The position numbers and the translations under genes were made by a program. Source: a virus. From it: a stretch of DNA of 34,632 bases. Every line of letters starts with the position of its first letter. Position 1 is the first letter of the stretch. Of this stretch, positions 6,229-34,195 are shown piece by piece. The notes beneath the pieces were generated by a model, which saw only the letters and a program-made list of their open reading frames with translations, was not told the origin of the DNA and did not search any database. The stretch is from the IMG/VR virus record IMGVR_UViG_3300036770_004529, positions 1-34,632 of that record; one strand, given 5' to 3'.

Positions 6229-6632
6229 TTCAATAATTCTGGATTTTCAAAGATGTTGCCGATAACTTTAAAACTCTTATCTTCCATAATAAAGAGCTTA
6301 TATTTTCCAACGGCCCAATAAGAATGATTCCAATGTATAATTCCAGCGTATGATTTCTTTTGGGACTGCGTTTGGGCGTTTTCCATATTGCATGTTACAA
6401 TATCTCCTTCATAAATTTCTTTACCATTTTTGTCTTTGAGGCCAATATATTGTTGGAGAGTGAAGTTGTCTTCAAAACAATCTTCACATTCGCTATAATC
6501 CCCTTCTTCACATTCGCTCAGAAAAATCGGACGACCGCTTGAATCCCAATATCCATCAGATAAAAATTCAATATTTTCAAAGAAGCATTTAAGATGCTTA
6601 TCCCAAATTCTAAATTTAATTTCTCTGTTCAT
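6225..6632 (-). CDS. YopX-family protein 3, 135 aa
   Basis: MNREIKFRIWDKHLKCFFEN, then LQQYIGLKDKNGKEIYEGDI and the shared C-terminus VIGNIFENPELLK. Insert with four cysteines/acidic residues (CEEGDYSECEDC) differs from the other copies. ATGA overlap with YopX 2. Confidence 0.88.
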   Translation of the reverse strand: MNREIKFRIWDKHLKCFFENIEFLSDGYWDSSGRPIFLSECEEGDYSECEDCFEDNFTLQQYIGLKDKNGKEIYEGDIVTCNMENAQTQSQKKSYAGIIHWNHSYWAVGKYKLFIMEDKSFKVIGNIFENPELLK

Positions 6633-8693: not shown

Positions 8694-8711
8694 ATTTTAT
8701 TGGGGTTCCTT
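8694..8711 (-). promoter_or_regulatory. AAGGAAC-N5-TAAAAT promoter variant
   Basis: AAGGAAC CCCAA TAAAAT, 7 nt before ATG 8686. The endonuclease gene ends inside it (KEPQ-TAA). Confidence 0.7.
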
Positions 8712-16313: not shown

Positions 16314-16883
16314 CTAATTGATATTTTTGTAGTTTGAATGAGGAGTTCCGCAAGAACAAAGCCGACTTATTACTCTTCCCGAGCAACCCTTACAGAAGTA
16401 AATGCCATTATGGTAGGTAGAGTTTTCTATTTCTTCAATCAATTCCGGGGTCTCGAAAATGTTACCTATCACCTCCCTGAAGGTAGTAATATAGCAAGTC
16501 CATACATAGGAAAGATCTGGGCAATCTCTCTCTTTGTTTATATACTGAAAATACTTTTTAGCCTCGGTTAGGCCGAACCTACTATTACGCTTATTCCAAA
16601 CTACAACATTTGTTAGATCTAAATAGTTGCCTTCACTATCAACTTCATCTGTGACATAGTTTCCTCTGGAAGCCATAATATCGCCCTCATAGATTTCTTT
16701 GTTATTGCTGTCCTTGAGCCCGGTATATTGCTGCAGCACTACTCTATCGAGAAAGTCGAGTTCGGAATAATTAAACTCTCCGTGACTATCATATCCGATT
16801 TTATCGTATTCAAAATCTATATTTCTTACGTCTATAAATCTCTTTTCAGTAAGATGCCAAGCTCTGAATTTAATTTCTCTCAT
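16314..16883 (-). CDS. YopX-family protein 4 with C-terminal zinc ribbon, 189 aa
   Basis: MREIKFRAWHLTEKRFIDVR and LQQYTGLKDSNNKEIYEGDI mark the YopX domain, ending VIGNIFETPELIE. A C-terminal extension of about 40 residues adds YFCKGCSGRVISRLCSCGTP, a CxxC...CxC zinc ribbon absent from the other three copies. It follows tRNA-Leu by 13 nt and may share its transcript. Confidence 0.88.
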   Translation of the reverse strand: MREIKFRAWHLTEKRFIDVRNIDFEYDKIGYDSHGEFNYSELDFLDRVVLQQYTGLKDSNNKEIYEGDIMASRGNYVTDEVDSEGNYLDLTNVVVWNKRNSRFGLTEAKKYFQYINKERDCPDLSYVWTCYITTFREVIGNIFETPELIEEIENSTYHNGIYFCKGCSGRVISRLCSCGTPHSNYKNIN

Positions 16884-17010: not shown

Positions 17011-17028
17011 ATTATATTAAAGTTCCTT
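17011..17028 (-). promoter_or_regulatory. AAGGAAC-N5-TATAAT promoter for tRNA-Leu
   Basis: AAGGAAC TTTAA TATAAT, 21 nt before tRNA-Leu. The HNH gene ends KEL-TAA inside it. Confidence 0.8.
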
Positions 17029-17694
17029 TTGGTCATTCGTTACGATTTTACCCGCTTCGTCGAATTTGACCGCTTCTGCACCTAGTTTTTCAGCTAGAGC
17101 GCTTAATTTGTAAGCTCGTGTATAATTACCGCCCTTCGCAGCTAGGCCTACTTTTAATAATGCCTGCCTTATATTAGACGTTGTAATAATACTTTCTATT
17201 AGTTCTTCATCGCTCACCTTAGTTTCACCATTGTTGATATTTTTACCACAATACGTTGAGGTTTGCGAGTGACAATTAGGACAAATAAATCTTAGATTAT
17301 CTATCTTACAGTTGCAAGGATTACCATCTATATGATCTAAATGCATCTGAAGAGAATTACCTTCCCACTCACTAATATTACATATCTCACACACACTATC
17401 ATTCCAATTTAGCTCTTTTGTTAGAACCTTACGTAAACGATTATTTGAAATGAATGATTGTCCAGATAATATTCTTTCCACGCATTCTCGTTTTTTAGTT
17501 TCAATCGATTTTATTCGATGCTCATCCATAAAAACAATCTTCTTTTTACCGTCCACATACGATGCCTTAACCCCATGCGAATTTTTCATTCTTAGAGCAG
17601 GGCATTTGTTGATAGATCGCTCACAGCATATTTTTTTATTTTTAAGCTCAAAAGTGCCTTCTCTATTACATCCATAGCTACACGTTTTTTTCAT
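17017..17694 (-). CDS. HNH homing-type endonuclease, 225 aa
   Basis: Start placed at ATG 17694, which lies 5 nt from the late promoter CATAAATA; an in-frame ATG at 17781 would add 29 basic residues. An N-terminal cysteine cluster (CSYGCN, CCERSINKC) precedes CEIC...MHLDHIDGNPCNCKIDNLRF-type HNH residues with N....CPNCHS zinc ligands. The C-terminal SNIRQALLKVGLAAKGGNY is a typical DNA-binding tail of phage HNH enzymes. Likely a selfish endonuclease. Confidence 0.88.
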   Translation of the reverse strand: MKKTCSYGCNREGTFELKNKKICCERSINKCPALRMKNSHGVKASYVDGKKKIVFMDEHRIKSIETKKRECVERILSGQSFISNNRLRKVLTKELNWNDSVCEICNISEWEGNSLQMHLDHIDGNPCNCKIDNLRFICPNCHSQTSTYCGKNINNGETKVSDEELIESIITTSNIRQALLKVGLAAKGGNYTRAYKLSALAEKLGAEAVKFDEAGKIVTNDQKEL

Positions 17695-17699
17695 ATATG

Positions 17700-17707
17700 T
17701 ATTTATG
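17700..17707 (-). promoter_or_regulatory. T4-type late promoter CATAAATA
   Basis: Ends 5 nt before ATG 17694 of the HNH gene, inside the longer possible frame. Confidence 0.7.
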
Positions 17708-17787
17708 GCAAACTCGCTTTTAATACTTAAAATTTCTTTTTTCTTTCTATTTTTTTTGTTTAAGTCTCTTGACCCAGGCATTAAAAT

Positions 17788-22469: not shown

Positions 22470-22675
22470 TTTTTAATCTCCTTTACGATTCTATCTACCA
22501 TATATGCTGGCATAATTTCATTTTCTTCTTCTGTAAATGTCTGAATAATTATATCTTCGTCATTGATAAGAACGCGCCTCACATAACCTGAATCTACAAG
22601 ATTAGAGATAATGGGGCGAATCATTTCACGGTCGTTCTCGGTGTTACCCTTTGTGAGGCCTATTACTATGCTCAT
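22466..22675 (-). CDS. small hypothetical protein, 69 aa
   Basis: MSIVIGLTKGNTENDREMIR, then a beta pair (VRRVLINDEDIIIQTF) and a helical end. ATGA overlaps at both ends. Not recognised. Confidence 0.6.
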   Translation of the reverse strand: MSIVIGLTKGNTENDREMIRPIISNLVDSGYVRRVLINDEDIIIQTFTEEENEIMPAYMVDRIVKEIKK

Positions 22676-23121
22676 TTGTGTATTGTTTTAATATAATCTA
22701 AAAGTTTATACATTTCAAATATTTTTTCCCCGATTTTTTCCCAAGACTCTGCTTCCAGTTCTGCTTGAACCATATCCCAGCCTTTTTTTCTTTTTGAAAT
22801 CATACTCGTAGCAGGTCTTTTATCAATCCTAAACTGGACCCAATGCCGGAACTCGTGAAATATAGTTTGTATAAACTCTTCAAATGTTTCGTTATTATCT
22901 AAGTTTACATATATAGTTTCTCCGTAATAATACCACCCCGCGAGAGTCTCATCATATTTAATCTTGATAGATATATTATGATTTGTTTTAGAGCGGTTGG
23001 TAAAAATCCATTCGTATGTAGCAGTTAGGCAATGCGAGAGTAGTTTCCAGTCTAAGTTGCACTTATACTTTTCTTCAATCTTTTCTATATCTTTCTTAGA
23101 CGGCTTTAACTGTATTTTCAT
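22672..23121 (-). CDS. zincin-type metallopeptidase-like protein, 149 aa
   Basis: ATG at 23121 (MKIQLKPSKKDIEKIEEKYK), overlapping the radA C-terminal gene by 26 nt. IFHEFRHWVQF contains HExxH, with a following acidic ELEAESWEKIGE helix that could give the third ligand. Similar small zincins occur in phages and mobile elements; substrate unknown. Confidence 0.72.
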   Translation of the reverse strand: MKIQLKPSKKDIEKIEEKYKCNLDWKLLSHCLTATYEWIFTNRSKTNHNISIKIKYDETLAGWYYYGETIYVNLDNNETFEEFIQTIFHEFRHWVQFRIDKRPATSMISKRKKGWDMVQAELEAESWEKIGEKIFEMYKLLDYIKTIHK

Positions 23122-24241
23122 ATGAGTGTTTCCAGATAGCAGAATCTCCTCTACCATACTTTACAAGATGACCCTCGGAAGTCAACGCTCTAAGTAGATA
23201 TCCCGCACGGGTAGCATCCACTTTAAGTTCTTTACATACGCGCTGAATAGTAATACCAGGCGGCTCGTTGAGAGCGCGAATCTTTTCCAGTTCTTCATCT
23301 TTACGCTTCGCTTTAGGCTTAGCGCGCTCTTCCTTAGGAGCGACTTCTTTATCAAAGTCAAACCCGCTAGAGCCAAAATACATTGAGATTTCAGAGAGGC
23401 AGCCGTATCGATTCTTTGTAGTAGCAACAGTTCTAAACGAACTATCATCTTCGTCTACAGTAATATCCATATTGACATCAACAGCATGAGGGATAGTAGT
23501 AGAGCCTTTATACATACCATTCTTCGTAATATGTAGAATAATACACATAGCAGTCTCGAACTCCTTACAAGCCCCTACAAGTTTAGCAATAGCACTCTCT
23601 TGAGCAGTTCTGTTAAGGCGAGAACCATTCTCAGACAAGCAAGGGAATGAATCAAACACTACAAAGTCCATCTCCTCCATGAACGAAATAATCTTATCGA
23701 TATCAGTCTCGTTCGCAACATAGACATTTTTGATTTTAAGTCGCCGCGAAGTATACGCAATCATCTCAATAGACTCTTCACCGGTAATATAAGCAGTCTT
23801 GTATCCGTTATTAGATAGAGACTCACAAAGTTGTAGCAGCAGGGTAGTATTGTGATGAATTACGCCGTTAGGGGTGATATAAACATGCGGCGCATCAAGG
23901 GAAATATCATATACATCAGAAATATCATTATCAATGATATTCCTTCTAATAATTTTATCCCCGCCATCAATTGTATCCACGCTATTGCACGCTTCAATCT
24001 TTTTACACACTCCGTTTTCAAAGACTAGATGCTCATTTGATACCTTTAACCTCTTTCCTGATTTTAAAAATACCTCATGCAGTGTATGGTTTGTTTTTCT
24101 GATATACCCTCTAATAGGAATTAGATTCTTTTGCGGATCAAGAGTATAAAGCTGCTCATTGCTGAATTCGATTTCGTTAGGAGCAATACCGACCTTTAGA
24201 AAGTCAAATAGATCTTTAAAGGTTACATTAATTTGTTTCAT
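23096..24241 (-). CDS. C-terminal half of a fractured RadA-like ATPase, with C-intein, 381 aa
   Basis: Residues 1-131 are the C-terminal part of an intein, with VFLKSGKRLKVSNEHLV (block B with H) and VYITPNGVIHHN (block G). Residues 132-381 are RadA/Sms-like: TTLLLQL completes Walker A, GEES at 154-157, Walker B FVVFDSF near 193-199, HITKNG near 236 and the RadA-specific KNRYG at 275-279. A winged-helix-like tail follows. Joined to the product of 25171-25434 by trans-splicing it would give a 308-aa ATPase with APGSGK|TT restored. It lacks the zinc finger and Lon-like domain of bacterial RadA. Confidence 0.88.
   Translation of the reverse strand: MKQINVTFKDLFDFLKVGIAPNEIEFSNEQLYTLDPQKNLIPIRGYIRKTNHTLHEVFLKSGKRLKVSNEHLVFENGVCKKIEACNSVDTIDGGDKIIRRNIIDNDISDVYDISLDAPHVYITPNGVIHHNTTLLLQLCESLSNNGYKTAYITGEESIEMIAYTSRRLKIKNVYVANETDIDKIISFMEEMDFVVFDSFPCLSENGSRLNRTAQESAIAKLVGACKEFETAMCIILHITKNGMYKGSTTIPHAVDVNMDITVDEDDSSFRTVATTKNRYGCLSEISMYFGSSGFDFDKEVAPKEERAKPKAKRKDEELEKIRALNEPPGITIQRVCKELKVDATRAGYLLRALTSEGHLVKYGRGDSAIWKHSYENTVKAV
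23849..24241 (-). mobile_element. C-terminal half of the split intein
   Basis: 131 residues from Met1 to HHN, followed by Thr as the +1 residue. It contains intein blocks B, F and G but not the first catalytic Cys, which is on the partner ORF. Confidence 0.85.
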
Positions 24242-25142
24242 TATTTTCGATTATATTATTAATTTTTGTTTTAATTATAGTAGGGTTCCATTTTGTAAAA
24301 TCATCCTCCCATATTACTACTACTCTATAGCCTTTTTCTTCTGCGAATATTTTCTTGCGATTATCTTTTTTCCAAATTTCTTCTGCTGATAAATTAATTA
24401 CAGGGTGTATATAGTCCTTAGTAAATTTCTTAGGATTACAATGCCAGAAATCGCCGTTGAATTCTATTAAGATCTTTTTTTTATGATTAATAAAATCATA
24501 AATAAACATTTTATTTTCGTCTGTCAGAACATATTGAGGGGTGTATTCCTCGCCGAGAATTTCGCCTAATTTTTTCTCCATCGCTGACGGGCCTCTATAT
24601 ATAACCCTCCTATGTATTATAGTTGGATCTATTTCTATTGCTTTCGATAAAGAATTAGCCCATTTTATGTTTCTTTCTTTTATTTTATTTTCAACTTCTT
24701 CTTCGCTAAAGCCTTTTTGTCTATAGAAATCCCGACCTCTTGATTGATTCTTATGGTGACCGTTTTTATACCACGTCTCGACTCTTTGCTTAATTAATTC
24801 AGGTATTCTAGATTTTTTACTCAACTCGGTCTGTAATTTTTTTATTTTTTTAACACTCTCATCATAGCTATACCCTCTTACAATCCAGTAAAATACCCTC
24901 CTATAGTTATACTTCTCTCCATACTTTTGTTTGAAAAAACTACTGAATTCTCTATTAAAATTATAAAGAGATATTTGATCTCGCTTTAAAATATTTTCTG
25001 CAAATTCTTTAATTTCATCAGTGTTTATAAAGTGATGAATATTATTTTTGTAATTTTTAGTTCGTTTTGCAATAATATTAGATATATCATCGATAGTATC
25101 GACGATAGCATATATAGTATTTCTCTTAGTTATCCAGGTCAT
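24228..25142 (-). CDS. free-standing Vsr-like (EDxHD) homing endonuclease, 304 aa
   Basis: The C-terminal third shows YTPQYVLTDENKMFIYDFIN then ILIEFNGDFWHCNP and VVVIWEDDF, the Vsr-fold nuclease pattern of the endonucleases found between split-intein halves. The N-terminal 200 residues are basic and helical with FSEEEVENKIKER-type segments, probably for DNA recognition. It lies exactly between the two radA halves, overlapping the second by 14 nt and separated from the first by 28 nt. It has its own late promoter 5 nt before ATG. Confidence 0.85.
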   Translation of the reverse strand: MTWITKRNTIYAIVDTIDDISNIIAKRTKNYKNNIHHFINTDEIKEFAENILKRDQISLYNFNREFSSFFKQKYGEKYNYRRVFYWIVRGYSYDESVKKIKKLQTELSKKSRIPELIKQRVETWYKNGHHKNQSRGRDFYRQKGFSEEEVENKIKERNIKWANSLSKAIEIDPTIIHRRVIYRGPSAMEKKLGEILGEEYTPQYVLTDENKMFIYDFINHKKKILIEFNGDFWHCNPKKFTKDYIHPVINLSAEEIWKKDNRKKIFAEEKGYRVVVIWEDDFTKWNPTIIKTKINNIIENNETN

Positions 25143-25147
25143 ATATA

Positions 25148-25155
25148 TATTTATG
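25148..25155 (-). promoter_or_regulatory. T4-type late promoter CATAAATA
   Basis: Ends 5 nt before ATG 25142 of the endonuclease and could also transcribe the radA C-half. Confidence 0.7.
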
Positions 25156-25170
25156 ACCCGGGCATGGAAT

Positions 25171-25434
25171 TTACCCCACCCGGGATAAAATAAAATTATT
25201 TAATCTGTTGATTAAATCGTCTGATCCAAAAATCGTAATTTCCTGATCACCAGCATGACACTTGCCTGAGCCTGGCGCGGCAGCAATCGTAGACACCGAG
25301 CCAGGCAAAATACCTTCGCCGCCATAGATTGTATCTAACTGCTTAACTCCCGTTTTCATTCTATTAAAGAATGAGTTAGGAACAATAACATCACTGATTT
25401 TAGTTAGTTTAGTTTTAGTATGATTAATAATCAT
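25171..25434 (-). CDS. N-terminal half of a fractured RadA-like ATPase, with N-intein, 87 aa
   Basis: Residues 1-58 are the start of a RecA-fold ATPase (TGVKQLDTIYGGEGILPGSV, then AAAPGSGK of Walker A). Residue 59 is Cys and opens an intein sequence, CHAGDQEITIF, that stops after 29 residues (ILSRVG). The stop splits the intein far earlier than the usual position of about residue 100. The remaining intein and ATPase are in 23096-24241. It has a 27-nt leader from its promoter. Confidence 0.88.
   Translation of the reverse strand: MIINHTKTKLTKISDVIVPNSFFNRMKTGVKQLDTIYGGEGILPGSVSTIAAAPGSGKCHAGDQEITIFGSDDLINRLNNFILSRVG
25174..25260 (-). mobile_element. N-terminal half of the split intein (29 aa)
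   Basis: Starts with the nucleophile Cys59 directly after GSGK; GDQE resembles the GDT motif of block A. Its short length resembles atypically split inteins such as AceL-TerL. Confidence 0.85.
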
Positions 25435-25461
25435 TTTTTTGTTTGTTTATTTTGTTCTCTT

Positions 25462-25479
25462 ATTATAACAGAGTTCCTT
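25462..25479 (-). promoter_or_regulatory. AAGGAAC-N5-TATAAT promoter
   Basis: AAGGAAC TCTGT TATAAT, with a 27-nt A-rich leader to ATG 25434. Confidence 0.8.
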
Positions 25480-25498
25480 TTATCTTTTTCTATTAAAA

Positions 25499-25798
25499 TC
25501 AGACCCCACACAAAACAACTTCGACTGGGCTACCACAATCAGGGCACTTGCCATCTTTGACGTCTCCATCGCAGTGCTGCTCATGCCATCCGCAACGCTC
25601 ACTCTTGACTTCTAAGATATGTTTACAATATCCAGGCCGGTGCTCAAACGCAGGGCAACTACATTCGTAGTCGTATTCATAGTCCCCGTCATATTGCTTC
25701 TGAAATGATACAGTATAGGTGTTATCTTTGCTGCCTTTGACTTCTTTTTTCCAGAAGACATTGGAGCAGCATTGCCGCATAGGAATGATATCTAACAT
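25499..25798 (-). CDS. SWIM zinc-finger protein, 99 aa
   Basis: YECSCPAFEHRPGYCKHILE is a SWIM motif (CxC...CxH), a fold that binds nucleic acids or proteins. A C-terminal knuckle CDGDVKDGKCPDCGSP adds further zinc ligands. The ATG at 25798 is 11 nt from the -10 box. Lies just before the radA operon; a link to recombination is plausible because some SWIM proteins act with RecA-family enzymes, but this is inference. Confidence 0.82.
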   Translation of the reverse strand: MLDIIPMRQCCSNVFWKKEVKGSKDNTYTVSFQKQYDGDYEYDYECSCPAFEHRPGYCKHILEVKSERCGWHEQHCDGDVKDGKCPDCGSPVEVVLCGV

Positions 25799-25809
25799 TT
25801 TTTTCTTAT

Positions 25810-25827
25810 ATTATAAGAAAGTTCCTT
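25810..25827 (-). promoter_or_regulatory. AAGGAAC-N5-TATAAT promoter
   Basis: AAGGAAC TTTCT TATAAT, 11 nt before ATG 25798. Confidence 0.8.
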
Positions 25828-25828
25828 A

Positions 25829-26596
25829 TTAAAAAGTTGCTAACGCTTCTTTCAACTCGGAAACTGGGGCAACAGTTTGTTGCTTACCCAAGTCATAATA
25901 CGCTCGCTCGAGCCAGTGGTTGTTATACAAATAAAGTTTTCCTTCCCTCTTAAGAGGCTTAGCAGCGGTTTTATAATCTATTTTACGCTCTTTCATCATA
26001 TAATCAACTACAGAAACAAACTCATCTTTTACATCAACAATAGGAACGGGCGGAGGAGATACAACTCCAGTACTCGCTTTCACTAAGTTAATAAACCAAT
26101 CTTTGCCAATCTTAGTGCCCGGGCATGTCTTCGAAGTCTTTGGGTCATCTCTATGAAAGAGAATAGTTTTGCTATTTGCCTCAACACCAATCCACTCCAG
26201 CAAATCAGCAGTAGCCTTAGCGGTAGTATTCCAGCACTCTTTGCCGCGGCCGTTGAGCGGGTCTTCTACATCATAGTTGCCCAATACCTCTATGCCAATG
26301 GTATAGGAGTTAAAAGACGCTGCGTGAATGCCCGCGGTAGTGAGAGGGGTCATGCCATATATCTCATTCTCATCAGTAAAGAGATGCGGCCCTCTATTCC
26401 ATCCTAATGTATTCTTATAGAAGCCGCTTATGTTATGGATATGTTCTATCAAGAGACCCTTAGGTCTCTGAGCGAGAGAAGGTGCCGCGGTATGATGAAT
26501 AACCACAGCCCTAACCCAAGATGGTTTCTTTACAGTTTTAAGATACTCCTTGAAAGAAGCATTCGACCAGACCTTTCCAACATTCGCGTATGACAT
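25829..26596 (-). CDS. endolysin, N-acetylmuramoyl-L-alanine amidase, 255 aa
   Basis: An amidase_2/PGRP-type domain: VIHHTAAPS, GPHLFTDENEIYGMTPL, FNSYTIGIEVLGNYD and LFHRDDPKTSKTCPG supply the zinc ligands and catalytic residues (H, H, C or D). The C-terminal 60 residues (from PPPVPIVDVKDEF) are probably a wall-binding segment. It cleaves the peptide from the sugar in peptidoglycan at lysis. ATG 26596 (MSYANVGKVW) follows a late promoter; the longer frame is rejected because it starts inside the inverted repeat. No signal peptide. Confidence 0.9.
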   Translation of the reverse strand: MSYANVGKVWSNASFKEYLKTVKKPSWVRAVVIHHTAAPSLAQRPKGLLIEHIHNISGFYKNTLGWNRGPHLFTDENEIYGMTPLTTAGIHAASFNSYTIGIEVLGNYDVEDPLNGRGKECWNTTAKATADLLEWIGVEANSKTILFHRDDPKTSKTCPGTKIGKDWFINLVKASTGVVSPPPVPIVDVKDEFVSVVDYMMKERKIDYKTAAKPLKREGKLYLYNNHWLERAYYDLGKQQTVAPVSELKEALATF

Positions 26597-26599
26597 ATA

Positions 26600-26644
26600 A
26601 AAATATTTAGGCAGATAGCCAAAGACCATCCACCTAAATATTTT
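26600..26644. other. 12-bp inverted repeat: terminator combined with late promoter
   Basis: AAAATATTTAGG and its exact complement, 21 nt apart. On the minus strand it can fold after the DUF932 stop and ends in a T-run. Its second arm contains CCTAAATA (26604-26611), the late promoter of the endolysin gene, 7 nt before ATG. Confidence 0.65.
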
Positions 26645-26647
26645 CTT

Positions 26648-27481
26648 TTATGCTGCTTTCAAATAATCAAGAGCCTTAACAGACATGGTAGGCATAGTAA
26701 GAGTGCGAATAAACTTGGTCGCGGAAGTCTTTTGGTAAGATTCGAACTCAGTTACTGCGTTAAAGGCATCCCATCTGGTCTGACCTTCATTCGCCAACCC
26801 ATGGCCGAACTTCATCAAGATTTTCTCACGCTTCTTTTCAGTGCGGTCGCTCTCGCCCTTTTGCTTAGGGATAAGATTCTCAATAAGTTTAACCATCTCA
26901 TCGCGACTGAACTTCTTAGATTGAAGACTCTCAGCAAGAGAGGTAAAACTCCTAGCAGCATTGATACTATTAGTAATATTATCTTTGAATACTTCAACGC
27001 GATCATCAAACCTCATGTTATGTCGAAGAGACGGAAGGTCAGAGTTGCGATTTTGATCCTTTACCAGGTGAAAACTATTCATACAACTAATTCGAATAGT
27101 AGAAGGCACAATGCGATTAGAAGACTTTCCTCGGTGGTCAATAATCGTATAGAAATAACCATCAATCGGGTCTTTGTCTAGTCCAAGGTCACCAATTTCG
27201 CTTCGAATAACAAGTTGTGACCCGGTAGCGTTCTCGGTAAAGCCTGTATGCCTGATATCCCCATTGACTCGCTTACAGGCCTCGCTGATAGTATCAATCA
27301 TCTCATCGAGTTGGATGGGACGATACTTGTCAGTACAGATACCGATATGCTGCTCCGAATCATCTCTTGTTAGAGACCAAAGATTCGGAAGTTGAAGACC
27401 TGCTTTAGTAAACAAGGGTTGCTTGCTAACATTAAAGTGTGGGATTTCGTTCAGTGTATTGATGTTTTTGAATATTTTCAT
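26648..27481 (-). CDS. DUF932 / phage-plasmid-like protein, 277 aa
   Basis: MKIFKNINTLNEIPHFNVSK with CTDKYRPIQ near residue 49, VIRSEIGD, IRISCMNSFHLVK and the C-terminal GQTRWDAFNAVTEF block match the DUF932 (TIGR03299-like) family common in phages and plasmids. Function unresolved. It is followed by the inverted repeat at 26600-26644. Confidence 0.88.
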   Translation of the reverse strand: MKIFKNINTLNEIPHFNVSKQPLFTKAGLQLPNLWSLTRDDSEQHIGICTDKYRPIQLDEMIDTISEACKRVNGDIRHTGFTENATGSQLVIRSEIGDLGLDKDPIDGYFYTIIDHRGKSSNRIVPSTIRISCMNSFHLVKDQNRNSDLPSLRHNMRFDDRVEVFKDNITNSINAARSFTSLAESLQSKKFSRDEMVKLIENLIPKQKGESDRTEKKREKILMKFGHGLANEGQTRWDAFNAVTEFESYQKTSATKFIRTLTMPTMSVKALDYLKAA

Positions 27482-27493
27482 TTTGTTTCCTAT

Positions 27494-27511
27494 ATTTTAT
27501 TTGAGTTCCTT
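27494..27511 (-). promoter_or_regulatory. AAGGAAC-N5-TAAAAT promoter variant
   Basis: AAGGAAC TCAAA TAAAAT, 12 nt before ATG 27481. The upstream gene ends KELK-TAA in it. Confidence 0.7.
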
Positions 27512-27682
27512 TTGTTTATTTTTACACCGTTCAGATATAATAGCCATAGCATTAGATTCTGTCAAACCTAAATTCATTAGTTCTTTTAATATATGCTTTA
27601 TTAGCAAATACTCAACCCCTTTAAGTTTGAATTTTCTACCACTTACTGAGTCTATTACCCTTAACGACACGAAGTCAATCAT
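27497..27682 (-). CDS. small basic helical protein, 61 aa
   Basis: MIDFVSLRVIDSVSGRKFKL, then helices (YLLIKHILKELMNLGLTESN) and a lysine-rich end. ATG 27682 overlaps the upstream HhH gene by 8 nt. Not recognised. Confidence 0.6.
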   Translation of the reverse strand: MIDFVSLRVIDSVSGRKFKLKGVEYLLIKHILKELMNLGLTESNAMAIISERCKNKQKELK

Positions 27683-28238
27683 ATTCAGGCATATTTAGTT
27701 TTGAATAGTTGACTTCACCGCTTGATGTTTTATAATGATAGTAGTTGTTAATATTATTGTATAGTTCCCTTTGAACTGATTTAGTGGGCGAACTATTGCG
27801 CTTGTTGCGGTCGCTAACGAAGTTCCTTAGGTGGCACTTACAAATAAGAACATAGGGGCAAGTATTACACCCCGTAGATGCTCTTACTAAATCTGGCCGA
27901 TGACAAGTATCTTTTACCAAATCTTCATAAAAGGCGATTTTCGAATTATGAGGCAACTCACTGAATGGAGTCTTCTGCGTTAAAGAAAATCCTGATACAT
28001 ATTCAATAAGTTCTTGCAACTTCTCATTGCGAGATACTTTACGCTTTTTTTCTGGCGGCTCAATACCAAGTTTAATAAGAGTATTGCGACCAATGCCTTT
28101 TATCTTGAGCAGGTCTTTAGCGCTGTTAAACTGATATTTATCTCTATAAAGAACAATGCGATTCGCTGTTCCTTTTCCAATACCTGGCAGTTTAATAAGC
28201 GACTTGAAATCTAAACTATTAAAGTCTTTAATATTCAT
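27675..28238 (-). CDS. helix-hairpin-helix DNA-binding protein with cysteine cluster, 187 aa
   Basis: Residues 12-58 hold two HhH motifs (LIKLPGIGKGTANRIV and LLKIKGIGRNTLIKLG), as in ComEA-type DNA-binding domains. A second part has CNTCPYVLICKCHL, a likely metal site. The end is basic and tyrosine-rich. Non-specific DNA binding is expected; possible role in repair or recombination with the nearby RecB-like nuclease (28887-29600). Confidence 0.8.
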   Translation of the reverse strand: MNIKDFNSLDFKSLIKLPGIGKGTANRIVLYRDKYQFNSAKDLLKIKGIGRNTLIKLGIEPPEKKRKVSRNEKLQELIEYVSGFSLTQKTPFSELPHNSKIAFYEDLVKDTCHRPDLVRASTGCNTCPYVLICKCHLRNFVSDRNKRNSSPTKSVQRELYNNINNYYHYKTSSGEVNYSKLNMPEYD

Positions 28239-28443
28239 TCTTGAATTGAATTACGTTTATAGGTGTTCGTTTGATTGATTCATCAATACAGAGTAAAACT
28301 GCTATGATTTCTCTCAATTCTACATCATCTCTTTCAATAACACTATAGATAGTTTGCTTCTCTTTTAAGGTAAGAGAGTAATTATCCTTTGTGTAGTCAA
28401 ATATAGATTGTGAAAGATTGAAAATAAATTCATCGGATTTCAT
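28228..28443 (-). CDS. small hypothetical protein, 71 aa
   Basis: ATG at 28443 (MKSDEFIFNLSQSIFDYTKD) in a TAATG junction with the upstream gene; helical and acidic. Not recognised. Confidence 0.62.
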   Translation of the reverse strand: MKSDEFIFNLSQSIFDYTKDNYSLTLKEKQTIYSVIERDDVELREIIAVLLCIDESIKRTPINVIQFKNEY

Positions 28444-28835
28444 TATGACCAATAATCGTCATCATCAGGAATCATCAGGAGAAAGATATCATCAAGGTCA
28501 GTAAAACTTTGAGCATCAATTTTATTAGCAGCAGCAGGAGCGTCTTTAGTTAGCATTACAATGCTCTCATACGCATACTGGCCAATAATATTAGAACAAT
28601 AAGCCTTTGATTCAAATACTTTGTTAAAATTAAAATTAGTTGACAATTCCTCTGCGTAAACTTCGCAGATATAATTTAGTATATGCTTATATTTTGTAGC
28701 CTGGGTCGGTGAAAGGTCCTTCAAGAGACGCTTCTTACAATTAGCCCCAGGAGACCATTTGATAGATTCGATAAACTGCCAAAACTGGAGCCTCTCATTC
28801 GGGTCGAGCATTTCAATACGTTCGATCAATTTCAT
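28443..28835 (-). CDS. hypothetical protein, 130 aa
   Basis: MKLIERIEMLDPNERLQFWQ; basic helical first half (LSPTQATKYKHILNYI) and acidic C-terminal end (MIPDDDDYWS). The promoter with a 35-nt A-rich leader is at 28871-28888. Not recognised. Confidence 0.66.
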   Translation of the reverse strand: MKLIERIEMLDPNERLQFWQFIESIKWSPGANCKKRLLKDLSPTQATKYKHILNYICEVYAEELSTNFNFNKVFESKAYCSNIIGQYAYESIVMLTKDAPAAANKIDAQSFTDLDDIFLLMIPDDDDYWS

Positions 28836-28870
28836 TTATTTGTTTTTTCGTTTTTCATTTTTGTTTTTTT

Positions 28871-28888
28871 ATTATACAAAAGTTCCTT
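28871..28888 (-). promoter_or_regulatory. AAGGAAC-N5-TATAAT promoter
   Basis: AAGGAAC TTTTG TATAAT, 35 nt before ATG 28835. Confidence 0.8.
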
Positions 28889-29600
28889 ATTCAAAATAAT
28901 TATTTATTTTTTGTTGTTCTAATATTTCTAAAATATCTCTTTTAAGATACGGCAAATAATATTCTTTTACTTCGGCAGAAGCACTCGGGTCGCTATTGAA
29001 ATATATTATTTTAAGTTCTACGCATTTCTTGCCAGTAAGTTGCTCCTTCATATAAGCATACATGCTCAACTGTAAGCAATAGTTGCTATATTCACAGTTT
29101 GGTAAATGGTCTACAGGAGATAATAAAAACGTATCACTCTTAAAACTATTTGTAAATCTAAACTTTTTATTTGTCTTGAGGTCCCATATCTTAAAATGGT
29201 CTTTATTTTCAAATATAATATCTGCGGTCCCAGCAACCTTATGGATATCATTATACATCCTCTCTTCTGCTATAACATTATAATGAGAATGCTCTTTAAG
29301 TTGACTCTTAAAGTAATCAATGAGTATGCTATAGTCTTTATTGTCTTCTCCGGTCTTTAAGAATGTTTCTAAGATAGCATGGATAGCAGTCCCTCTTGTT
29401 GTAGATATTCTATTTAAATCCTCCCAGTGCTTTTTAACATCTTCAACGAGAAGACCTTCCTTAGCGGCAAAACGAGCGGCTTGCTCGTCAACATTAAACT
29501 TAGGCTTATATTTGCCAAGAAGGGTTGTTACTGATATATAATCCTCGCCTGTTTGAGTATTAGTATATCTATGATTTTTCTCATCAAAAACTATAGCCAT
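28887..29600 (-). CDS. RecB/Cas4-like PD-(D/E)XK exonuclease, 237 aa
   Basis: Motifs in order: RGTAIHAILE near residue 68, VAGTADIIFE near 120, FKIWDLKTNKK (D-x-K catalytic centre) near 136 and CLQLSMYAYM (QhxxY) near 180. This is the layout of phage RecB-type nucleases that act on DNA ends. An iron-sulfur cysteine set is not seen. Last non-virion gene before the late module. Confidence 0.85.
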   Translation of the reverse strand: MAIVFDEKNHRYTNTQTGEDYISVTTLLGKYKPKFNVDEQAARFAAKEGLLVEDVKKHWEDLNRISTTRGTAIHAILETFLKTGEDNKDYSILIDYFKSQLKEHSHYNVIAEERMYNDIHKVAGTADIIFENKDHFKIWDLKTNKKFRFTNSFKSDTFLLSPVDHLPNCEYSNYCLQLSMYAYMKEQLTGKKCVELKIIYFNSDPSASAEVKEYYLPYLKRDILEILEQQKINNYFE

Positions 29601-29636
29601 ATATAACTATATTCTACTTTAAAACAAAATCAACTA

Positions 29637-30425
29637 CTAATCGTATCCGCCGTAGGGAGAAGTATCATTTACATCCATATCGAATATTTCAGTTTTACTG
29701 TAAGTATCAATATCAAATGTGTATGATTTATTTTCTGTCTTAGGAGTATCCCCTCCCGAAAGTCTGCCAGAGAAGGCATTATCATAGATAAGATTATTAG
29801 CACCCTCAGCCGATAGGCCAGGCTGATAAGAGAACTCAAATCGTCTCGCTCTTATTCTCCAAACGTAATGACCGCCTAATGGGTTTATCTTGCCCATATC
29901 AGACTCCATACGCTCTGTTATAATGAACTGTTTGCCTGAGCGCCCATTAGGTCTTGTATTGCCATACTCTTCAAGTTCGAATACATCATCTGCTTTAGGT
30001 TCAATATATTGACCCTTTGTGCTGTGTATAGAATCGCCAGCAAAGGCTTCAGCAAAAGAAGATATGTGAACATAAGCAGTTACGTTATCATCTGCTCTCA
30101 AGCCAAACTTAGAAAACTGTATAGCGTCTTCTTCAAGTTCGATATACATCAATATAGTCTTAGGGGTATGGTAAACTGCTTGAGGCTGCTCGCCGTATAT
30201 AGCATCCGCTCCTGACAGTGTTGTGGTGTTTACATAATAAAGCACCGGTATGCCATATAGATTGATTGCGTCTTTTATTATTTCAGAGATAGTTCCTGAG
30301 TCAGGATTACAAGCCTTATTTGAAAACCTTGTAGTACAATCATCATTGCCGTTCTGTGCCCCTGTAAAGAAGCAGCTATCGCTGGTTTGAGACAGTTGAT
30401 AATAGTTGCCGCAAGAATCACTCAT
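29637..30425 (-). CDS. neck protein, T4 gp14-like, 262 aa
   Basis: LYGIPVLYYVNTTTLSGADAIYGEQPQ, then ILMYIELEEDAIQFSKFGLR and VYVHISSFAEAF-like (NVTAYVHISSFAEAF). The order of a strand of the Y(G)I.V.Y sort, a .FGE.P motif and FSKFGL is that of gp14-type head-tail neck proteins of T4-like phages. A short cysteine-rich N-terminus is unusual. Overlaps the upstream gene by 8 nt. Confidence 0.6.
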   Translation of the reverse strand: MSDSCGNYYQLSQTSDSCFFTGAQNGNDDCTTRFSNKACNPDSGTISEIIKDAINLYGIPVLYYVNTTTLSGADAIYGEQPQAVYHTPKTILMYIELEEDAIQFSKFGLRADDNVTAYVHISSFAEAFAGDSIHSTKGQYIEPKADDVFELEEYGNTRPNGRSGKQFIITERMESDMGKINPLGGHYVWRIRARRFEFSYQPGLSAEGANNLIYDNAFSGRLSGGDTPKTENKSYTFDIDTYSKTEIFDMDVNDTSPYGGYD

Positions 30426-30774
30426 TTTTTATTAAAATAAAACATTGACGCTGGGGTTCAAACCTAATAGTTATAGGCATATTGGACAGTTTCTTAGGAT
30501 GCTCTCTATCTAAATCTGTTATGCCGTACATCGAGCATATTTGTTTTACGTCAGCGTCAGAGAGCATCTCCATAGTCTTAACGCCGGTTCTTAAATGCTC
30601 TACCTTTGGATGACAACTCGCGTCGTGTTGCCGACTCTTTGCTATACCTTTTATATCTGATATACCTTCACCTGCGCGAAGGTCGCCCGCGGTATTAAAC
30701 GGGCTATGTAATGGAGACATTTCTCTCTGCGCTGTGGAGAGTTTAGAGCCAAAGTATTCTAAGAAAGTCATCAC
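30418..30774 (-). CDS. hypothetical late protein, 118 aa
   Basis: GTG start at 30774 lies exactly 5 nt after CCTAAATA; an ATG follows at 30771. The middle part has HDASCHPKVEHLRTGVKTME and LSDADVKQICSMYGITDLD. Unknown virion or assembly protein by position. Confidence 0.6.
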   Translation of the reverse strand: MMTFLEYFGSKLSTAQREMSPLHSPFNTAGDLRAGEGISDIKGIAKSRQHDASCHPKVEHLRTGVKTMEMLSDADVKQICSMYGITDLDREHPKKLSNMPITIRFEPQRQCFILIKNE

Positions 30775-30779
30775 ACTAT

Positions 30780-30787
30780 TATTTAGG
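30780..30787 (-). promoter_or_regulatory. late promoter variant CCTAAATA
   Basis: 5 nt before GTG 30774, directly after the terminator at 30800-30830. Confidence 0.6.
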
Positions 30788-30799
30788 AGGGAATATAAA

Positions 30800-30830
30800 A
30801 AAAGGCCGGGTCTATTAAACCCGACCTTTT
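30800..30830 (-). terminator. Rho-independent terminator
   Basis: AAAAGGTCGGGT stem with its complement (one G.T) and a U-run on the minus transcript. Ends 30851-31648. Confidence 0.88.
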
Positions 30831-30850
30831 ATTAGGTTTTTGTGTTTATA

Positions 30851-31648
30851 TTAGTTACCAAATGCGTGAGAGCCAGGAGTTCCGGGGCGTCTTGCTTTGA
30901 CTTTCATGTTACCATGGTCGGATTTACCGCCATGACCTTTCTTAGGATTAACGAGAGCGTGTCCGTAATCCCCGTCTTCGCCAACTTCATCGGTGTAGCT
31001 ACCATCACCGCCGCCAGAACTAGTCGGAAGATTGCCAACTTTTTGGCTACCTCTACTGGTAAGTTTGGAGACACCATCGGGGGCTTTTTGGAACTCAACC
31101 CCTTCAGGGAAAGGCGATTTCATGCCTTCATCTTCTCCCATATCTTCTCCCATATCTTCTCCCATATCTTCTCCCATATCTTCTCCACTGCCGAGCATTC
31201 CCTCGAGCGCGTCGTAGAGTTGTTGGGCAATATCGCGAGGCAAAGTGAGGGTAACTTCATCGCCTTCGTCGCCCGTATCAGCGCCTTCAGCATCAAAGTC
31301 TTCGCCAGTCTCAAGACCGAGAGCGGCGTTGTCATCTTCCATTACTTCTTCATAGAGCCTATCAAATAAGTTATTTCTCATACTGGTATTTATGCTTTCT
31401 TTTGCTATTTTCTTGATTTTTTTATCATTTTTTCGCTGAGGCTCCTCTGTAGGCTTCTCAACGCCTTTCACCATATGAGGGCCTTTTTCTTTCTTGCCTA
31501 AGCCGGTAAAACTTCCTTTTGCGTTCTTTTTATGTTTGCCGCCTTTTGCGCCTGGAAGATTCTGGTCTCCAGGGCCTTTCTTTTTGGCTTCAGTTAAAAA
31601 AGTGGTTTGAAATGCCTCGTAAATGCCAGCGATATCGTTGTGGTTCAT
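30851..31648 (-). CDS. acidic low-complexity late protein with two possible starts, 265 aa
   Basis: ATG 31648 (MNHNDIAGIYEAFQTTFLTE) gives the long form: a basic lysine/glycine-rich first third (GPGDQNLPGAKGGKHKKN), then an acidic part with GEDM repeats and a basic glycine-rich end. A second ATG at 31381 (MRNNLFDRLYEEVMEDDNAA) begins a 176-aa short form. Each ATG has CATAAATA exactly 5 nt upstream, so two nested late products are likely. A scaffold or core role is only a guess. Confidence 0.65.
   Translation of the reverse strand: MNHNDIAGIYEAFQTTFLTEAKKKGPGDQNLPGAKGGKHKKNAKGSFTGLGKKEKGPHMVKGVEKPTEEPQRKNDKKIKKIAKESINTSMRNNLFDRLYEEVMEDDNAALGLETGEDFDAEGADTGDEGDEVTLTLPRDIAQQLYDALEGMLGSGEDMGEDMGEDMGEDMGEDEGMKSPFPEGVEFQKAPDGVSKLTSRGSQKVGNLPTSSGGGDGSYTDEVGEDGDYGHALVNPKKGHGGKSDHGNMKVKARRPGTPGSHAFGN
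31131..31187. repeat. 12-bp tandem repeat coding for GEDM
   Basis: Four perfect copies of TCTTCTCCCATA on the plus strand plus a partial fifth, encoding GEDMGEDM on the minus strand. Divisible by three, so copy number can vary without frameshift. Confidence 0.88.
31387..31394 (-). promoter_or_regulatory. internal T4-type late promoter CATAAATA
   Basis: Ends 5 nt before the internal ATG at 31381. Confidence 0.65.
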
Positions 31649-31653
31649 ATTTT

Positions 31654-31661
31654 TATTTATG
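31654..31661 (-). promoter_or_regulatory. T4-type late promoter CATAAATA
   Basis: Ends 5 nt before ATG 31648. Confidence 0.7.
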
Positions 31662-31699
31662 ATAGTTAAGCGATTTTCCAATAAAAAATAAAAAAACAC

Positions 31700-31707
31700 C
31701 ATAAATA
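31700..31707 (+). promoter_or_regulatory. T4-type late promoter CATAAATA
   Basis: Ends 5 nt before ATG 31713; diverges from the promoter at 31654-31661. Confidence 0.7.
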
Positions 31708-31712
31708 ATAGC

Positions 31713-32087
31713 ATGGCAACATTTACAAACAACTCTCTTAACGTTACTCTTCCCGAACCGGATTTACTTTTAACTGAACTTTCAACTCACGTGGATTTTG
31801 TCAGCGCTGGGACTGTTGAAGGTAAAAACGTCCTCGGGGTAGCTTTCAATAAACTAGATACTCTCGTCGGAACAATGGTAGCTCTAAGTGCTTCGACTGG
31901 TGTAAAGTTCCGCGTTGACCGGGCCTATAATAACCAACAAATGGGCGTTATACTTCAAGATAGAAGTGTATGCTTATTTACTGCTCTTACTGCCTTTGGT
32001 GAAACAACTCGTCAAAACCTCACTGCGAGTTCTTTCGACCACAGTTATGAAGAACTTCGCCGACTTAAAACGCTTGGCTACATTTGA
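31713..32087 (+). CDS. hypothetical late protein, 124 aa
   Basis: MATFTNNSLNVTLPEPDLLL; beta-rich and not very charged, with VILQDRSVCLFTALTAFGET and a helical end. First plus-strand gene of the window. It converges with terminase, the two 3' ends overlapping by 10 nt with no terminator visible. Probably a virion component by timing. Confidence 0.68.
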   Translation: MATFTNNSLNVTLPEPDLLLTELSTHVDFVSAGTVEGKNVLGVAFNKLDTLVGTMVALSASTGVKFRVDRAYNNQQMGVILQDRSVCLFTALTAFGETTRQNLTASSFDHSYEELRRLKTLGYI

Positions 32088-34195
32088 GTCTGAAAAAGCG
32101 ACCAACCCATAGATTCGAGGTCTCCCATATCGGTATCCTCGATACTATTATTGAAGACAACGGGCATTCCAATATGCTCGTTGTTTTTGTCTGATAAGGT
32201 ATATATCGAGTTAGGGTTGGAGAAATACTTTAGGCCATATTCCAATGGCTTTATAACTCTCGGCTTGCCATTCAAATCACTCTCTACTACTTCAAAGTAT
32301 TTGAGAACTATATCATTATGGAGCACCATGAGGGCCCATGACATAGACATAACTCTATCATCATGATGACCTGACTCAGCAGCCCAACTCTTATTAGGCT
32401 TCCTGACAAAATGCTTAAACTCATTTAAGCAATCCTTACTATATATTCTCAATGAATCTAAATCATTCATCCAATATCTCATATTGGTAATAGCCTGATA
32501 CTTTGTATTGGTATGCGAAATCATTCCGAGTTGCTCTCTCGCTCTATTTGCTTTGCCTGCGCCATATGATACTATATTTTCATAGTGCTCCTCATTAACC
32601 AGTTTGTCTATAATCTGCGCTCCCGGGCCATTTCTCTCTATGAGTGCTAAGGGATTACCATAATGCGCAAGTACTTCTTTTACTTTGGTTATAAAGTTAT
32701 AGGGAGATATATCATTAGCGGCATATTCGGCTACTTGCTCGATACATTGTAGGTCAGTAATATCAAGAACTTGAATGACAGAAAAGTCCTGACCTATACC
32801 TTCAGCGATATCAATACCTGCTACATAGACGCGCTCAGGGTCTGGAGACTTATAAACCTTATATACCCCGTCATCAAGAACTAAATCTGGATCGCATAAA
32901 CGCATCTTAAACTGCTCAAACTGCTCATAGTTAATAGCGGATTGACCGGCAGAATGGAATTCAAGTTCAAATTCTTGAGCCCATAAGTCTTCACTCTCAA
33001 GAGACGCTTTTGTGATTCTCGCCCACTCAGCATCTCTACCAGGTATTTCTGACCAATGTATTCTCAATGGCGCCCATCCATTCTCTCCTTTTTCCGCCCC
33101 AGACCATAACTGATAGAATAAGTTATCAGTACCGTTAGGGGTTGATGCTATAAGAATCTTAGACTTCTTGGACGCAGAAATAATAGGATAAACCGCGGCC
33201 CAGAACTCTTTCATGAGGTGGGTATTATGGTTTGAAATATTATTGCCATAAAATGTCTGACAATCCTCTACGTCTACAACATCAAATAGCGGGCAGTCCG
33301 GTATTTCGGCAATACTCTCAGCAATAACAAACTTGTGCTCGTTGGTTTCGAAATCGTAGGATTTTATTTTTTTGCCTATACTGTCTTTTGCATATGTAAA
33401 CTCTCCTGAACTCTCCTCGAATTCATGCTCAGGAGATACTATTATTGAATCTCCACTTGTAAAGGTCACTGCGATGGCCCTTCTCGGGGAATATTTTTTA
33501 ATTCCCTTAAATTTCTTCCAGCCAGCGCTAGTAAGTATTTCCCAGTTGTCTACATATTCTGTTAGGAACATTTGAGCAGCAACTTCAATAGACATTTTTT
33601 TAACTTCCCCGGTTACATTATTCCGTAAAATAATCTCTGTATCTCCCCCAACACATTCAATGTGCGCTAACTCATCAAGTATTAGCAGGTCGCAAGAACT
33701 ACCCCGACCAGCAGAACTTGTAGTAGTTGTAATACCTATCCGAGAACCGTTCTCAAACTCAGCAGATGTTTTGCCATACTCCTTTACAGCAGGCTTTAGC
33801 CAGTTAGGAAGTTCTTCATATGCTAATCGAATACGTCTAAAGATTTCTATGGCAGTAGCCTCTTTGTTAGCGACAAGTAGTATTCTTTGGTCTTGCTTAA
33901 AGCAAGCAATCCAGAGAGCAAAAATGGTCATTAGAGTAGATTTACCTACCTGTCTGGAAGCGCATGTTATTGTAAATCTATTTGCTTCAAAGAGCCTTAG
34001 TGCCTTTTTTTGACACTCATGTAGTTTTATCTTGCGTCTACCCTCCCCAGGCTCAATAATAAAGAAGAAGTTCTCAGCAAAGTATACTATATTCTTACTG
34101 GCCTTTTTTAGAGCAGCGATTTGCTCTGGGGTATACTCGAACTTTGCCCCGCGCCTCGGAAGGTTGGGGTTGTTCATGTAGAACTGATCTTCCAT
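32078..34195 (-). CDS. terL: terminase large subunit with in-frame intein, 705 aa (561 after splicing)
   Basis: T4 gp17-like DNA-packaging motor. ATPase part: Walker A SRQVGKST near residues 80-87 and Walker B LLILDELAHIE at 170-180. Nuclease part: DIAEGIGQDFS, IERNGPGAQI and HHDDRVMSMSWAL provide acidic metal ligands. Residues 181-324 are an intein that must leave for the ATPase to form, because it follows directly on the Walker B strand. Its TGTAAATA late promoter is 6 nt before ATG. No small terminase is seen next to it. Confidence 0.93.
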   Translation of the reverse strand: MEDQFYMNNPNLPRRGAKFEYTPEQIAALKKASKNIVYFAENFFFIIEPGEGRRKIKLHECQKKALRLFEANRFTITCASRQVGKSTLMTIFALWIACFKQDQRILLVANKEATAIEIFRRIRLAYEELPNWLKPAVKEYGKTSAEFENGSRIGITTTTSSAGRGSSCDLLILDELAHIECVGGDTEIILRNNVTGEVKKMSIEVAAQMFLTEYVDNWEILTSAGWKKFKGIKKYSPRRAIAVTFTSGDSIIVSPEHEFEESSGEFTYAKDSIGKKIKSYDFETNEHKFVIAESIAEIPDCPLFDVVDVEDCQTFYGNNISNHNTHLMKEFWAAVYPIISASKKSKILIASTPNGTDNLFYQLWSGAEKGENGWAPLRIHWSEIPGRDAEWARITKASLESEDLWAQEFELEFHSAGQSAINYEQFEQFKMRLCDPDLVLDDGVYKVYKSPDPERVYVAGIDIAEGIGQDFSVIQVLDITDLQCIEQVAEYAANDISPYNFITKVKEVLAHYGNPLALIERNGPGAQIIDKLVNEEHYENIVSYGAGKANRAREQLGMISHTNTKYQAITNMRYWMNDLDSLRIYSKDCLNEFKHFVRKPNKSWAAESGHHDDRVMSMSWALMVLHNDIVLKYFEVVESDLNGKPRVIKPLEYGLKYFSNPNSIYTLSDKNNEHIGMPVVFNNSIEDTDMGDLESMGWSLFQTQM
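33224..33655 (-). mobile_element. mini-intein in TerL (144 aa)
   Basis: Starts at Cys181 (CVGGDTEIIL, block A), has GDSIIVSPEHEF (block B with His), DVVDVEDCQTFYGNNI (block F)and ends ISNHN, followed by Thr. There is no endonuclease domain. Removal restores LDELAHIE-THLMKEFW, matching gp17-type terminases. Confidence 0.92.

What the first reader, a model, noticed from the sequence alone, without database searches (positions are those of the whole stretch)
23096..25434. Fractured radA-like gene with an atypically split intein and a nested endonuclease gene
Gene order is N-extein plus 29-residue N-intein, Vsr-like endonuclease, then 131-residue C-intein plus C-extein. The split is inside Walker A (GSGK|TT). 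Fractured genes with EDxHD/Vsr-like endonucleases are known from metagenomes, and short N-inteins such as AceL-TerL are rare. Here both occur together in a RadA/Sms-type ATPase. The short N-intein makes it a candidate trans-splicing intein.
Basis: partly seen in the sequence, partly recalled or inferred. Interest (0 to 1): 0.9.

Follow-up and report, generated by a model that had tools for sequence, protein, structure and literature searches.

The report
Phage RadA-like gene with split intein
A phage ATPase gene is broken into two separate genes by a self-splicing protein element that carries its own DNA-cutting enzyme gene, and the two protein halves very probably stitch themselves together; the arrangement is real, but similar elements turn out to be widespread in the same ATP-binding loop of other phage proteins.

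Summary
On the minus strand lie an 87-aa ORF (58 aa RadA-like extein + 29 aa N-intein), a 304-aa Vsr/EDxHD-type endonuclease, and a 381-aa ORF (131 aa C-intein + 250 aa extein). Four related phage contigs carry the same gene uninterrupted, 77-79% identical, with GSGK-TT directly joined (the empty site); three more at 61% are also uninterrupted. The expected intein residues are present. The C-intein model matches solved inteins (best: Pho RadA intein) and the endonuclease model matches Vsr and I-Bth0305I. Most likely this is an atypically split intein that trans-splices, with a nested homing endonuclease. The rarity argument fails: a search with the endonuclease gave 22 non-redundant loci with both halves of an atypically split intein at Walker A GK|S/T (DnaB-like helicase, TerL, clamp loader, SbcC-like and this gene), and 7 more with the N-half only. 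New here are the RadA-like host gene and an earlier split position, shared with the SbcC-like cases. Splicing and homing are inferred, not tested. It is a new variant of a known kind; the wider Walker-A lineage is the more interesting result.

The parts
25261..25434 (-). N-extein: first 58 aa of the RadA-like ATPase, ending in Walker A ...APGSGK
   Evidence: TIGR00416 positions 58-108; aligns with intact homologues in L002, L004, L006, L007
25174..25260 (-). N-intein, 29 aa (CHAGDQEITIFGSDDLINRLNNFILSRVG), followed by stop TAA at 25171-25173; block-A strand plus an extra helix-like tail
   Evidence: aligned with other P-loop inteins; tail similar to that of L091 (p=0.023)
25134..25161 (.). Inverted repeat spanning the endonuclease start codon; predicted hairpin that would hold the ATG in its stem
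   Evidence: (z=-2.16); function inferred only
24228..25142 (-). Nested endonuclease gene, 304 aa, C-terminal Vsr/EDxHD-type nuclease domain (about residues 186-285)
   Evidence: TIGR00632 vsr E=0.0013; phrog_22677 E=9.5e-20; model matches 1cw0, 1vsr, 3r3p; GC 28.9% against about 40% for exteins
23849..24241 (-). C-intein, 131 aa, from its own ATG (overlaps the endonuclease end by 14 nt) to ...NGVIHHN; block-B His at residue 71, penultimate His130, Asn131
   Evidence: PF14890 E=2.9e-5; TIGR01443; AF2 model matches Hint/intein structures, best 2lqm
23099..23848 (-). C-extein: 250 aa, TTLLLQL... to end, with KNRYG motif (residues 203-207 of the joined protein) and a winged-helix-like C-terminus; stop at 23096-23098
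   Evidence: TIGR00416 positions 108-270; aligns with intact homologues, dN/dS 0.12-0.14

Best explanation
This is a fractured gene. A phage RecA-fold ATPase related to the RadA/Sms core has been invaded, exactly between Lys and Thr of its Walker A motif, by an intein whose coding sequence is itself interrupted by a homing endonuclease gene. The phage makes two polypeptides, extein-N plus a 29-aa N-intein and a 131-aa C-intein plus extein-C. The intein halves bind, Cys1 attacks the preceding peptide bond, Thr+1 takes over the N-extein, Asn131 cyclises, and a 308-aa ATPase with an intact P-loop is released. Until then neither half has a complete Walker A. The nested Vsr/EDxHD-type endonuclease would cut the uninterrupted allele in co-infecting related phages, so that the whole cassette is copied in. 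Shown: anatomy, motifs, fold matches, empty sites in relatives, purifying selection on both extein halves. Inferred: trans-splicing, ATPase activity of the product, DNA cleavage and homing.
For: Empty-site homologues L002/L004/L006/L007 (77-79%) and L064-L066 (61%) with an uninterrupted gene. Halves join without gap on TIGR00416. PF14890 and TIGR01443 matches. C-intein model: Foldseek best hits are all inteins, 2lqm E=9e-5. Endonuclease model: best hits 1cw0, 1vsr, and the EDxHD homing enzyme I-Bth0305I 3r3p. dN/dS of extein N 0.07-0.12, extein C 0.12-0.14. Endonuclease and intein are AT-richer than the exteins. The same layout occurs at Walker A of other phage NTPases.
Against: No experiment. 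N-intein residues 13-29 have no counterpart in most inteins and the intein matches no solved one closely (26% identity). Position 6 of block A is Gln where other inteins here mostly have Thr or Ser. No second copy of this fractured RadA-like gene was found. Synonymous sites are near saturation, and much of the divergence may predate the insertion, so dN/dS is only a weak sign of present function.
Confidence: 0.86

Rival explanations
1. Genes in pieces without splicing: the two polypeptides associate and work as a two-subunit ATPase (as for the NrdA case cited in PMC10448857), the intein being a dead remnant.
For: Such a case is known for a HEG-split ribonucleotide reductase (cited in PMC10448857). 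The intein is divergent (long branch 3.94).
Against: The break is inside Walker A, between the catalytic Lys and Thr, and would leave 29 and 131 foreign residues in the ATP site. Cys1, block-B His, terminal His-Asn and Thr+1 are all kept.
Confidence: 0.05
2. A dead gene: the RadA-like function is lost in this phage and the pieces are decaying.
For: No direct evidence. The endonuclease has no close relative for a test of selection.
Against: All three ORFs are open, extein dN/dS is 0.07-0.14 in both halves, no higher than between two intact relatives (0.16-0.22).
Confidence: 0.04
3. Assembly artefact joining an endonuclease contig into the gene.
For: The record is a metagenomic contig of 34.6 kb with no reads to hand.
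Against: Both splice junctions are codon-exact, the C-part start codon overlaps the endonuclease stop, and the same layout is found in many other contigs.
Confidence: 0.02
4. RNA-level splicing (a group I or II intron) joins the halves.
For: The interruption is about 1.4 kb and carries an endonuclease gene, as introns do.
Against: No Rfam match in 22600-26000 at E<=0.5 on either strand. The flanks code for the two halves of a Hint domain in frame with the exteins.
Confidence: 0.02

Closest known systems
Fractured genes with split inteins and nested endonucleases (Dassa et al. 2009, NAR 37:2560; known here only through citations in PMC10448857 and PMC12350094, text not held)
   Same: Two extein halves, split intein, free-standing endonuclease gene of the EDxHD/Vsr family between them
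   Different: Here the intein is split near its N-terminus and the host gene is a RadA-like ATPase; typical split inteins have an N-part of about 100 aa (PMC10189870, PMC12707363)
Atypically split inteins: AceL-TerL (from memory), PolB16 OarG (15-aa IntN, PMC10189870)
   Same: Very short N-intein, long C-intein
   Different: 29-aa N-intein with a helix-like tail; class-1 Cys1/Thr+1, while PolB16 uses Ser1/Ser+1; inserted in Walker A
Pho RadA intein (PDB 2lqm, 4e2t, 4e2u)
   Same: Best sequence and fold match of the intein. Inserted in a RecA-fold recombinase; insertion at the same Lys|Thr point is from memory
   Different: Contiguous, archaeal, no nested endonuclease; only 26% identical over the fold match
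Fractured SbcC-like genes L091 and L151 (this work)
   Same: Walker A GK|S insertion, nested EDxHD-type endonuclease, same early split: C-part starts with a similar strand-helix segment (p 0.0006 and 0.0002)
   Different: Host gene SbcC-like (phrog_77), +1 residue Ser, inteins at most 26% identical to this one
Vsr / I-Bth0305I EDxHD endonucleases
   Same: Predicted fold of the C-terminal domain and conserved D..IEFNGDxWHxNP..W core
   Different: Long N-terminal region with helical modules; no cleavage data

Membership tests
Fractured gene (split intein + nested endonuclease) | Two separate ORFs that together make one extein, and intact homologues exist | tested here: met
   Seven uninterrupted homologues; halves abut on TIGR00416
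Fractured gene (split intein + nested endonuclease) | Endonuclease ORF lying between the intein halves | tested here: met
   304-aa ORF, Vsr-like fold
Fractured gene (split intein + nested endonuclease) | Protein trans-splicing gives the joined protein | not testable with these tools
   Needs co-expression
Class 1 intein (Hint fold) | Cys/Ser at 1, block-B His, penultimate His, terminal Asn, Cys/Ser/Thr at +1 | tested here: met
   C1, H71 of the C-part (S-N-E-H), H130, N131, T+1
Class 1 intein (Hint fold) | Profile match above the curated cut-off | tested here: not met
   PF14890 24.4 bits (28.5 joined) against 35.8; TIGR01443 14.7 against 15.6: divergent, but significant E-value and fold match
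Class 1 intein (Hint fold) | Hint fold | tested here: met
   AF2 of the C-intein, mean pLDDT 67.5 (residues 1-29 below 50), Foldseek top hits all inteins
Atypically split intein | Short IntN (about 15-25 aa in PMC12707363) and long IntC | tested here: met
   29 and 131 aa; slightly longer IntN than the quoted range
EDxHD/Vsr homing endonuclease | Vsr-like nuclease fold with conserved acidic/His core | tested here: met
   Foldseek 1cw0 E=1.5e-3, 1vsr, 3r3p; conserved D216, E227, G230, D231, H234, N236, P237, W278
EDxHD/Vsr homing endonuclease | Cuts the intein-free allele and promotes copying | not testable with these tools
   Needs cleavage and homing assays
RadA/Sms | RecA-like ATPase core with KNRFG motif | tested here: met
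   TIGR00416 E=4.4e-32 on the joined protein; KNRYG at 203-207
RadA/Sms | Full-length equivalog score (N-terminal zinc finger and Lon-like C-terminal domain) | tested here: not met
   111 bits against cutoff 403; only profile positions 59-270 of 454 matched

The most novel reading that the evidence does not exclude
The gene is one member of an unrecognised lineage of atypically split inteins with nested EDxHD endonucleases that is specialised on the Walker A Lys|Ser/Thr point, and has spread over at least five unrelated or distantly related phage NTPase families (DnaB-like helicase, TerL, clamp loader, SbcC-like, RadA-like). ATPase activity of each would depend on two polypeptides meeting. Within it, RadA-like and SbcC-like members form a second subtype, split before the second strand of the Hint domain.
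Probability: 0.5. Interest if true: 0.65.

Novelty: new variant of a known kind. Interest (0 to 1): 0.52.

Why it matters
It gives a natural split intein with a short, chemically makeable N-part and Cys1/Thr+1 chemistry in a new host protein, with empty-site relatives that make splicing and homing directly testable. The wider set shows that splitting at Walker A, with the ATPase dead until trans-splicing, is a repeated solution in phages. It also shows neighbouring stages in one phage group (empty, contiguous intein, fractured intein with endonuclease, split without endonuclease), which bears on how split inteins arise.

Tried and rejected
Single-protein scans of viral contigs with the C-part and with the endonuclease found nothing. 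tblastn in phage and plasmid records found only bacterial RadA and helicases for the extein. Rfam scan for an intron: none. Idea that the N-intein tail (residues 13-29) is just read-through sequence of the inserted endonuclease cassette: weakened, because L091 has a similar tail (p=0.023) and L139 has a similar unsplit insertion, not significant (p=0.13). Idea of co-conversion around the insertion: sliding identity shows no clear tract. PDB profile search with the endonuclease alignments gave no sequence match; only the fold comparison did. Placing the intein and endonuclease on trees: long branches (3.94 and 2.57) and weak support, so no claim of exact kinship. Dassa 2009 could not be read, so overlap of the Walker-A set with published fractured genes is not fully checked.

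Full report
OBSERVATION. The window is a viral metagenome record of 34,632 bp, classed linear. On the minus strand, three ORFs lie in a row: 25171-25434 (87 aa), 24228-25142 (304 aa) and 23096-24241 (381 aa). The first ends ...APGSGK|CHAGDQEITIFGSDDLINRLNNFILSRVG; the third runs MKQINVTFKDLF...NGVIHHN|TTLLLQL.... Joined at these points the exteins give 308 aa. Both halves match TIGR00416 (Sms/RadA) at abutting profile positions, 58-108 and 108-270. Joined, the score is E=4.4e-32, 111 bits, below the curated 403 for true RadA. It is therefore a RadA-core ATPase (with the KNRYG motif), not a RadA.

EMPTY SITES. The TerL of the window led to close relatives. L002, L004, L006 and L007 hold the same gene unbroken at 77-79% identity, in the same neighbourhood, with GSGKTT directly joined. 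L064-L066 hold it at 61%, also unbroken. Repeated scans found only these seven in viral contigs, and the window is the only interrupted one (the scan may leave out near copies of the window). dN/dS between the window and the four close relatives is 0.07-0.12 for the N-extein and 0.12-0.14 for the C-extein, with synonymous sites near saturation. Two intact relatives compared with each other give 0.16-0.22.

THE INTEIN. PF14890 matches the C-part at 2.9e-5, and TIGR01443 lies just under its cut-off. Cys1, S-N-E-H (block B), the HHN end and Thr+1 are present. An AlphaFold model of the C-intein alone, from nine sequences, has mean pLDDT 67.5, with residues 1-29 unsure. Its eight matches under E=0.001 are all inteins, led by the Pho RadA intein, which is also the best PDB sequence match. 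The N-intein is short, so the split is of the atypical kind as defined in PMC10189870 and PMC12707363.

SPLIT POSITION. In the other atypically split inteins found here (helicase, TerL, clamp loader), the N-part contains the first strand, the second strand and the start of the helix, e.g. CVIGDSLIEVKNKITGKIETMSIRDFHTML. In the window the second strand and helix open the C-part. The same early split is seen in two SbcC-like genes, L091 and L151. Their C-part starts resemble the window's more than shuffled sequence does (p 0.0006 and 0.0002); the N-tail resembles that of L091 (p=0.023) but not that of L151 (p=0.43). An intein tree puts the window next to these, with weak support (75/63) and a very long branch.

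THE ENDONUCLEASE. Sequence: TIGR00632 vsr E=0.0013, phrog_22677 E=9.5e-20. Model from 30 sequences, mean pLDDT 76.3 and above 90 in most of the nuclease core. Foldseek: 1cw0 and 1vsr (Vsr), then 3r3p (I-Bth0305I, EDxHD homing endonuclease) at E=0.1. GC is 28.9% against about 40% in the exteins, consistent with an acquired cassette. Its relatives in isolate phages sit in or next to broken genes: Tenacibaculum PTm1 split DNA polymerase, Campylobacter CP21 polymerase pieces, upstream of TerL in Caulobacter Cr30. The C-part ATG overlaps the end of the endonuclease ORF by 14 nt, and an inverted repeat covers the endonuclease start. Translational coupling and start-codon masking are inferences.

HOW COMMON IT IS. 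A pattern scan for PG.GKC..GD in viral contigs found clamp-loader genes broken at GTGK|T with 29-30 aa N-inteins and a nested Vsr-like ORF. A scan with an alignment of the endonuclease found 314 relatives, of which the best 80 were kept. After removal of near copies, 38 loci had a detectable intein half next to the endonuclease: 22 with both halves and a C-intein above 110 aa, all at GK|S/T; 7 more with only an N-half at GK|C; one with a long C-half whose N-half is off the contig; and 8 with a short C-intein (33-64 aa; seven judged polymerase and one reductase-like by eye), none at GK. Host genes were confirmed by PHROGs for ten of them: clamp loader, DnaB-like helicase, TerL, SbcC-like. The census is biased towards relatives of the window's endonuclease, because only the best 80 of 314 were kept, and the N-half search looked for GK. 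But the C-half search did not use the P-loop, and it found no atypical case with an upstream partner at another site. Atypically split inteins at other sites exist with other nucleases (TerL of L002 and L052), so the statement holds for EDxHD-type nested genes only.

MECHANISM. Inferred from the known chemistry of class 1 inteins: N-to-S acyl shift at Cys1, transesterification to Thr+1, Asn131 cyclisation, acyl shift. The result restores Walker A. Homing by the nested endonuclease is inferred from its family and from empty alleles in related phages.

KNOWN AND NEW. Fractured genes with EDxHD endonucleases, atypically split inteins, and the Lys|Thr P-loop site (PMC5050341) are each known. New within what could be searched: the RadA-like host, the early split shared with SbcC-like genes, and the size of the Walker-A set. 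The founding paper on fractured genes was not available, so priority for the Walker-A set is open. Filed as a new variant of a known kind.

Noticed in passing
window 33224-33655 (-), inside TerL 32078-34195; L002 8129-11476; L003-L007: Window TerL carries a contiguous 144-aa intein without endonuclease at LDELAHIE|THLMKEFW. L002 has the homologous intein at the same site as an atypically split one (33-aa N-part) around a 403-aa TnsA-like nuclease ORF, and L003-L007 have the empty site: three states of one site in close relatives.
   Followed up: partly
L052 375-6246: A related TerL is in four pieces, with three atypically split inteins in series and three different nested ORFs (GIY-YIG, TnsA-like, and one of unknown family). 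If real, making TerL needs three trans-splicing events.
   Followed up: partly
L071, motif at 2309 (-): Clamp-loader gene split at Walker A by an atypically split intein with no nested endonuclease, only a 176-nt spacer.
   Followed up: no
L015, L030, L039, L049: TerL inserts before residue 86, at Walker A; in L030 this is one long contiguous intein with LAGLIDADG-like sequence at GK|ST. The other three were not read.
   Followed up: partly
window 8697-9530 (-) and 17017-17781 (-): Two free-standing endonuclease-like genes in the same phage: DUF7487/phage endonuclease I-like and HNH.
   Followed up: no
window 5467-6632 (-) and 16314-16883 (-): Several ORFs sharing ...QQYTGLKDKNGKEIYEGDI..., which looks like the YopX domain (from memory), in and near tandem.
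   Followed up: no
window 22672-31732 against L004/L006/L007: Strong mosaicism: some genes 94-98% identical to the relatives, the RadA-like gene and its neighbours only 58-77%.
   Followed up: no
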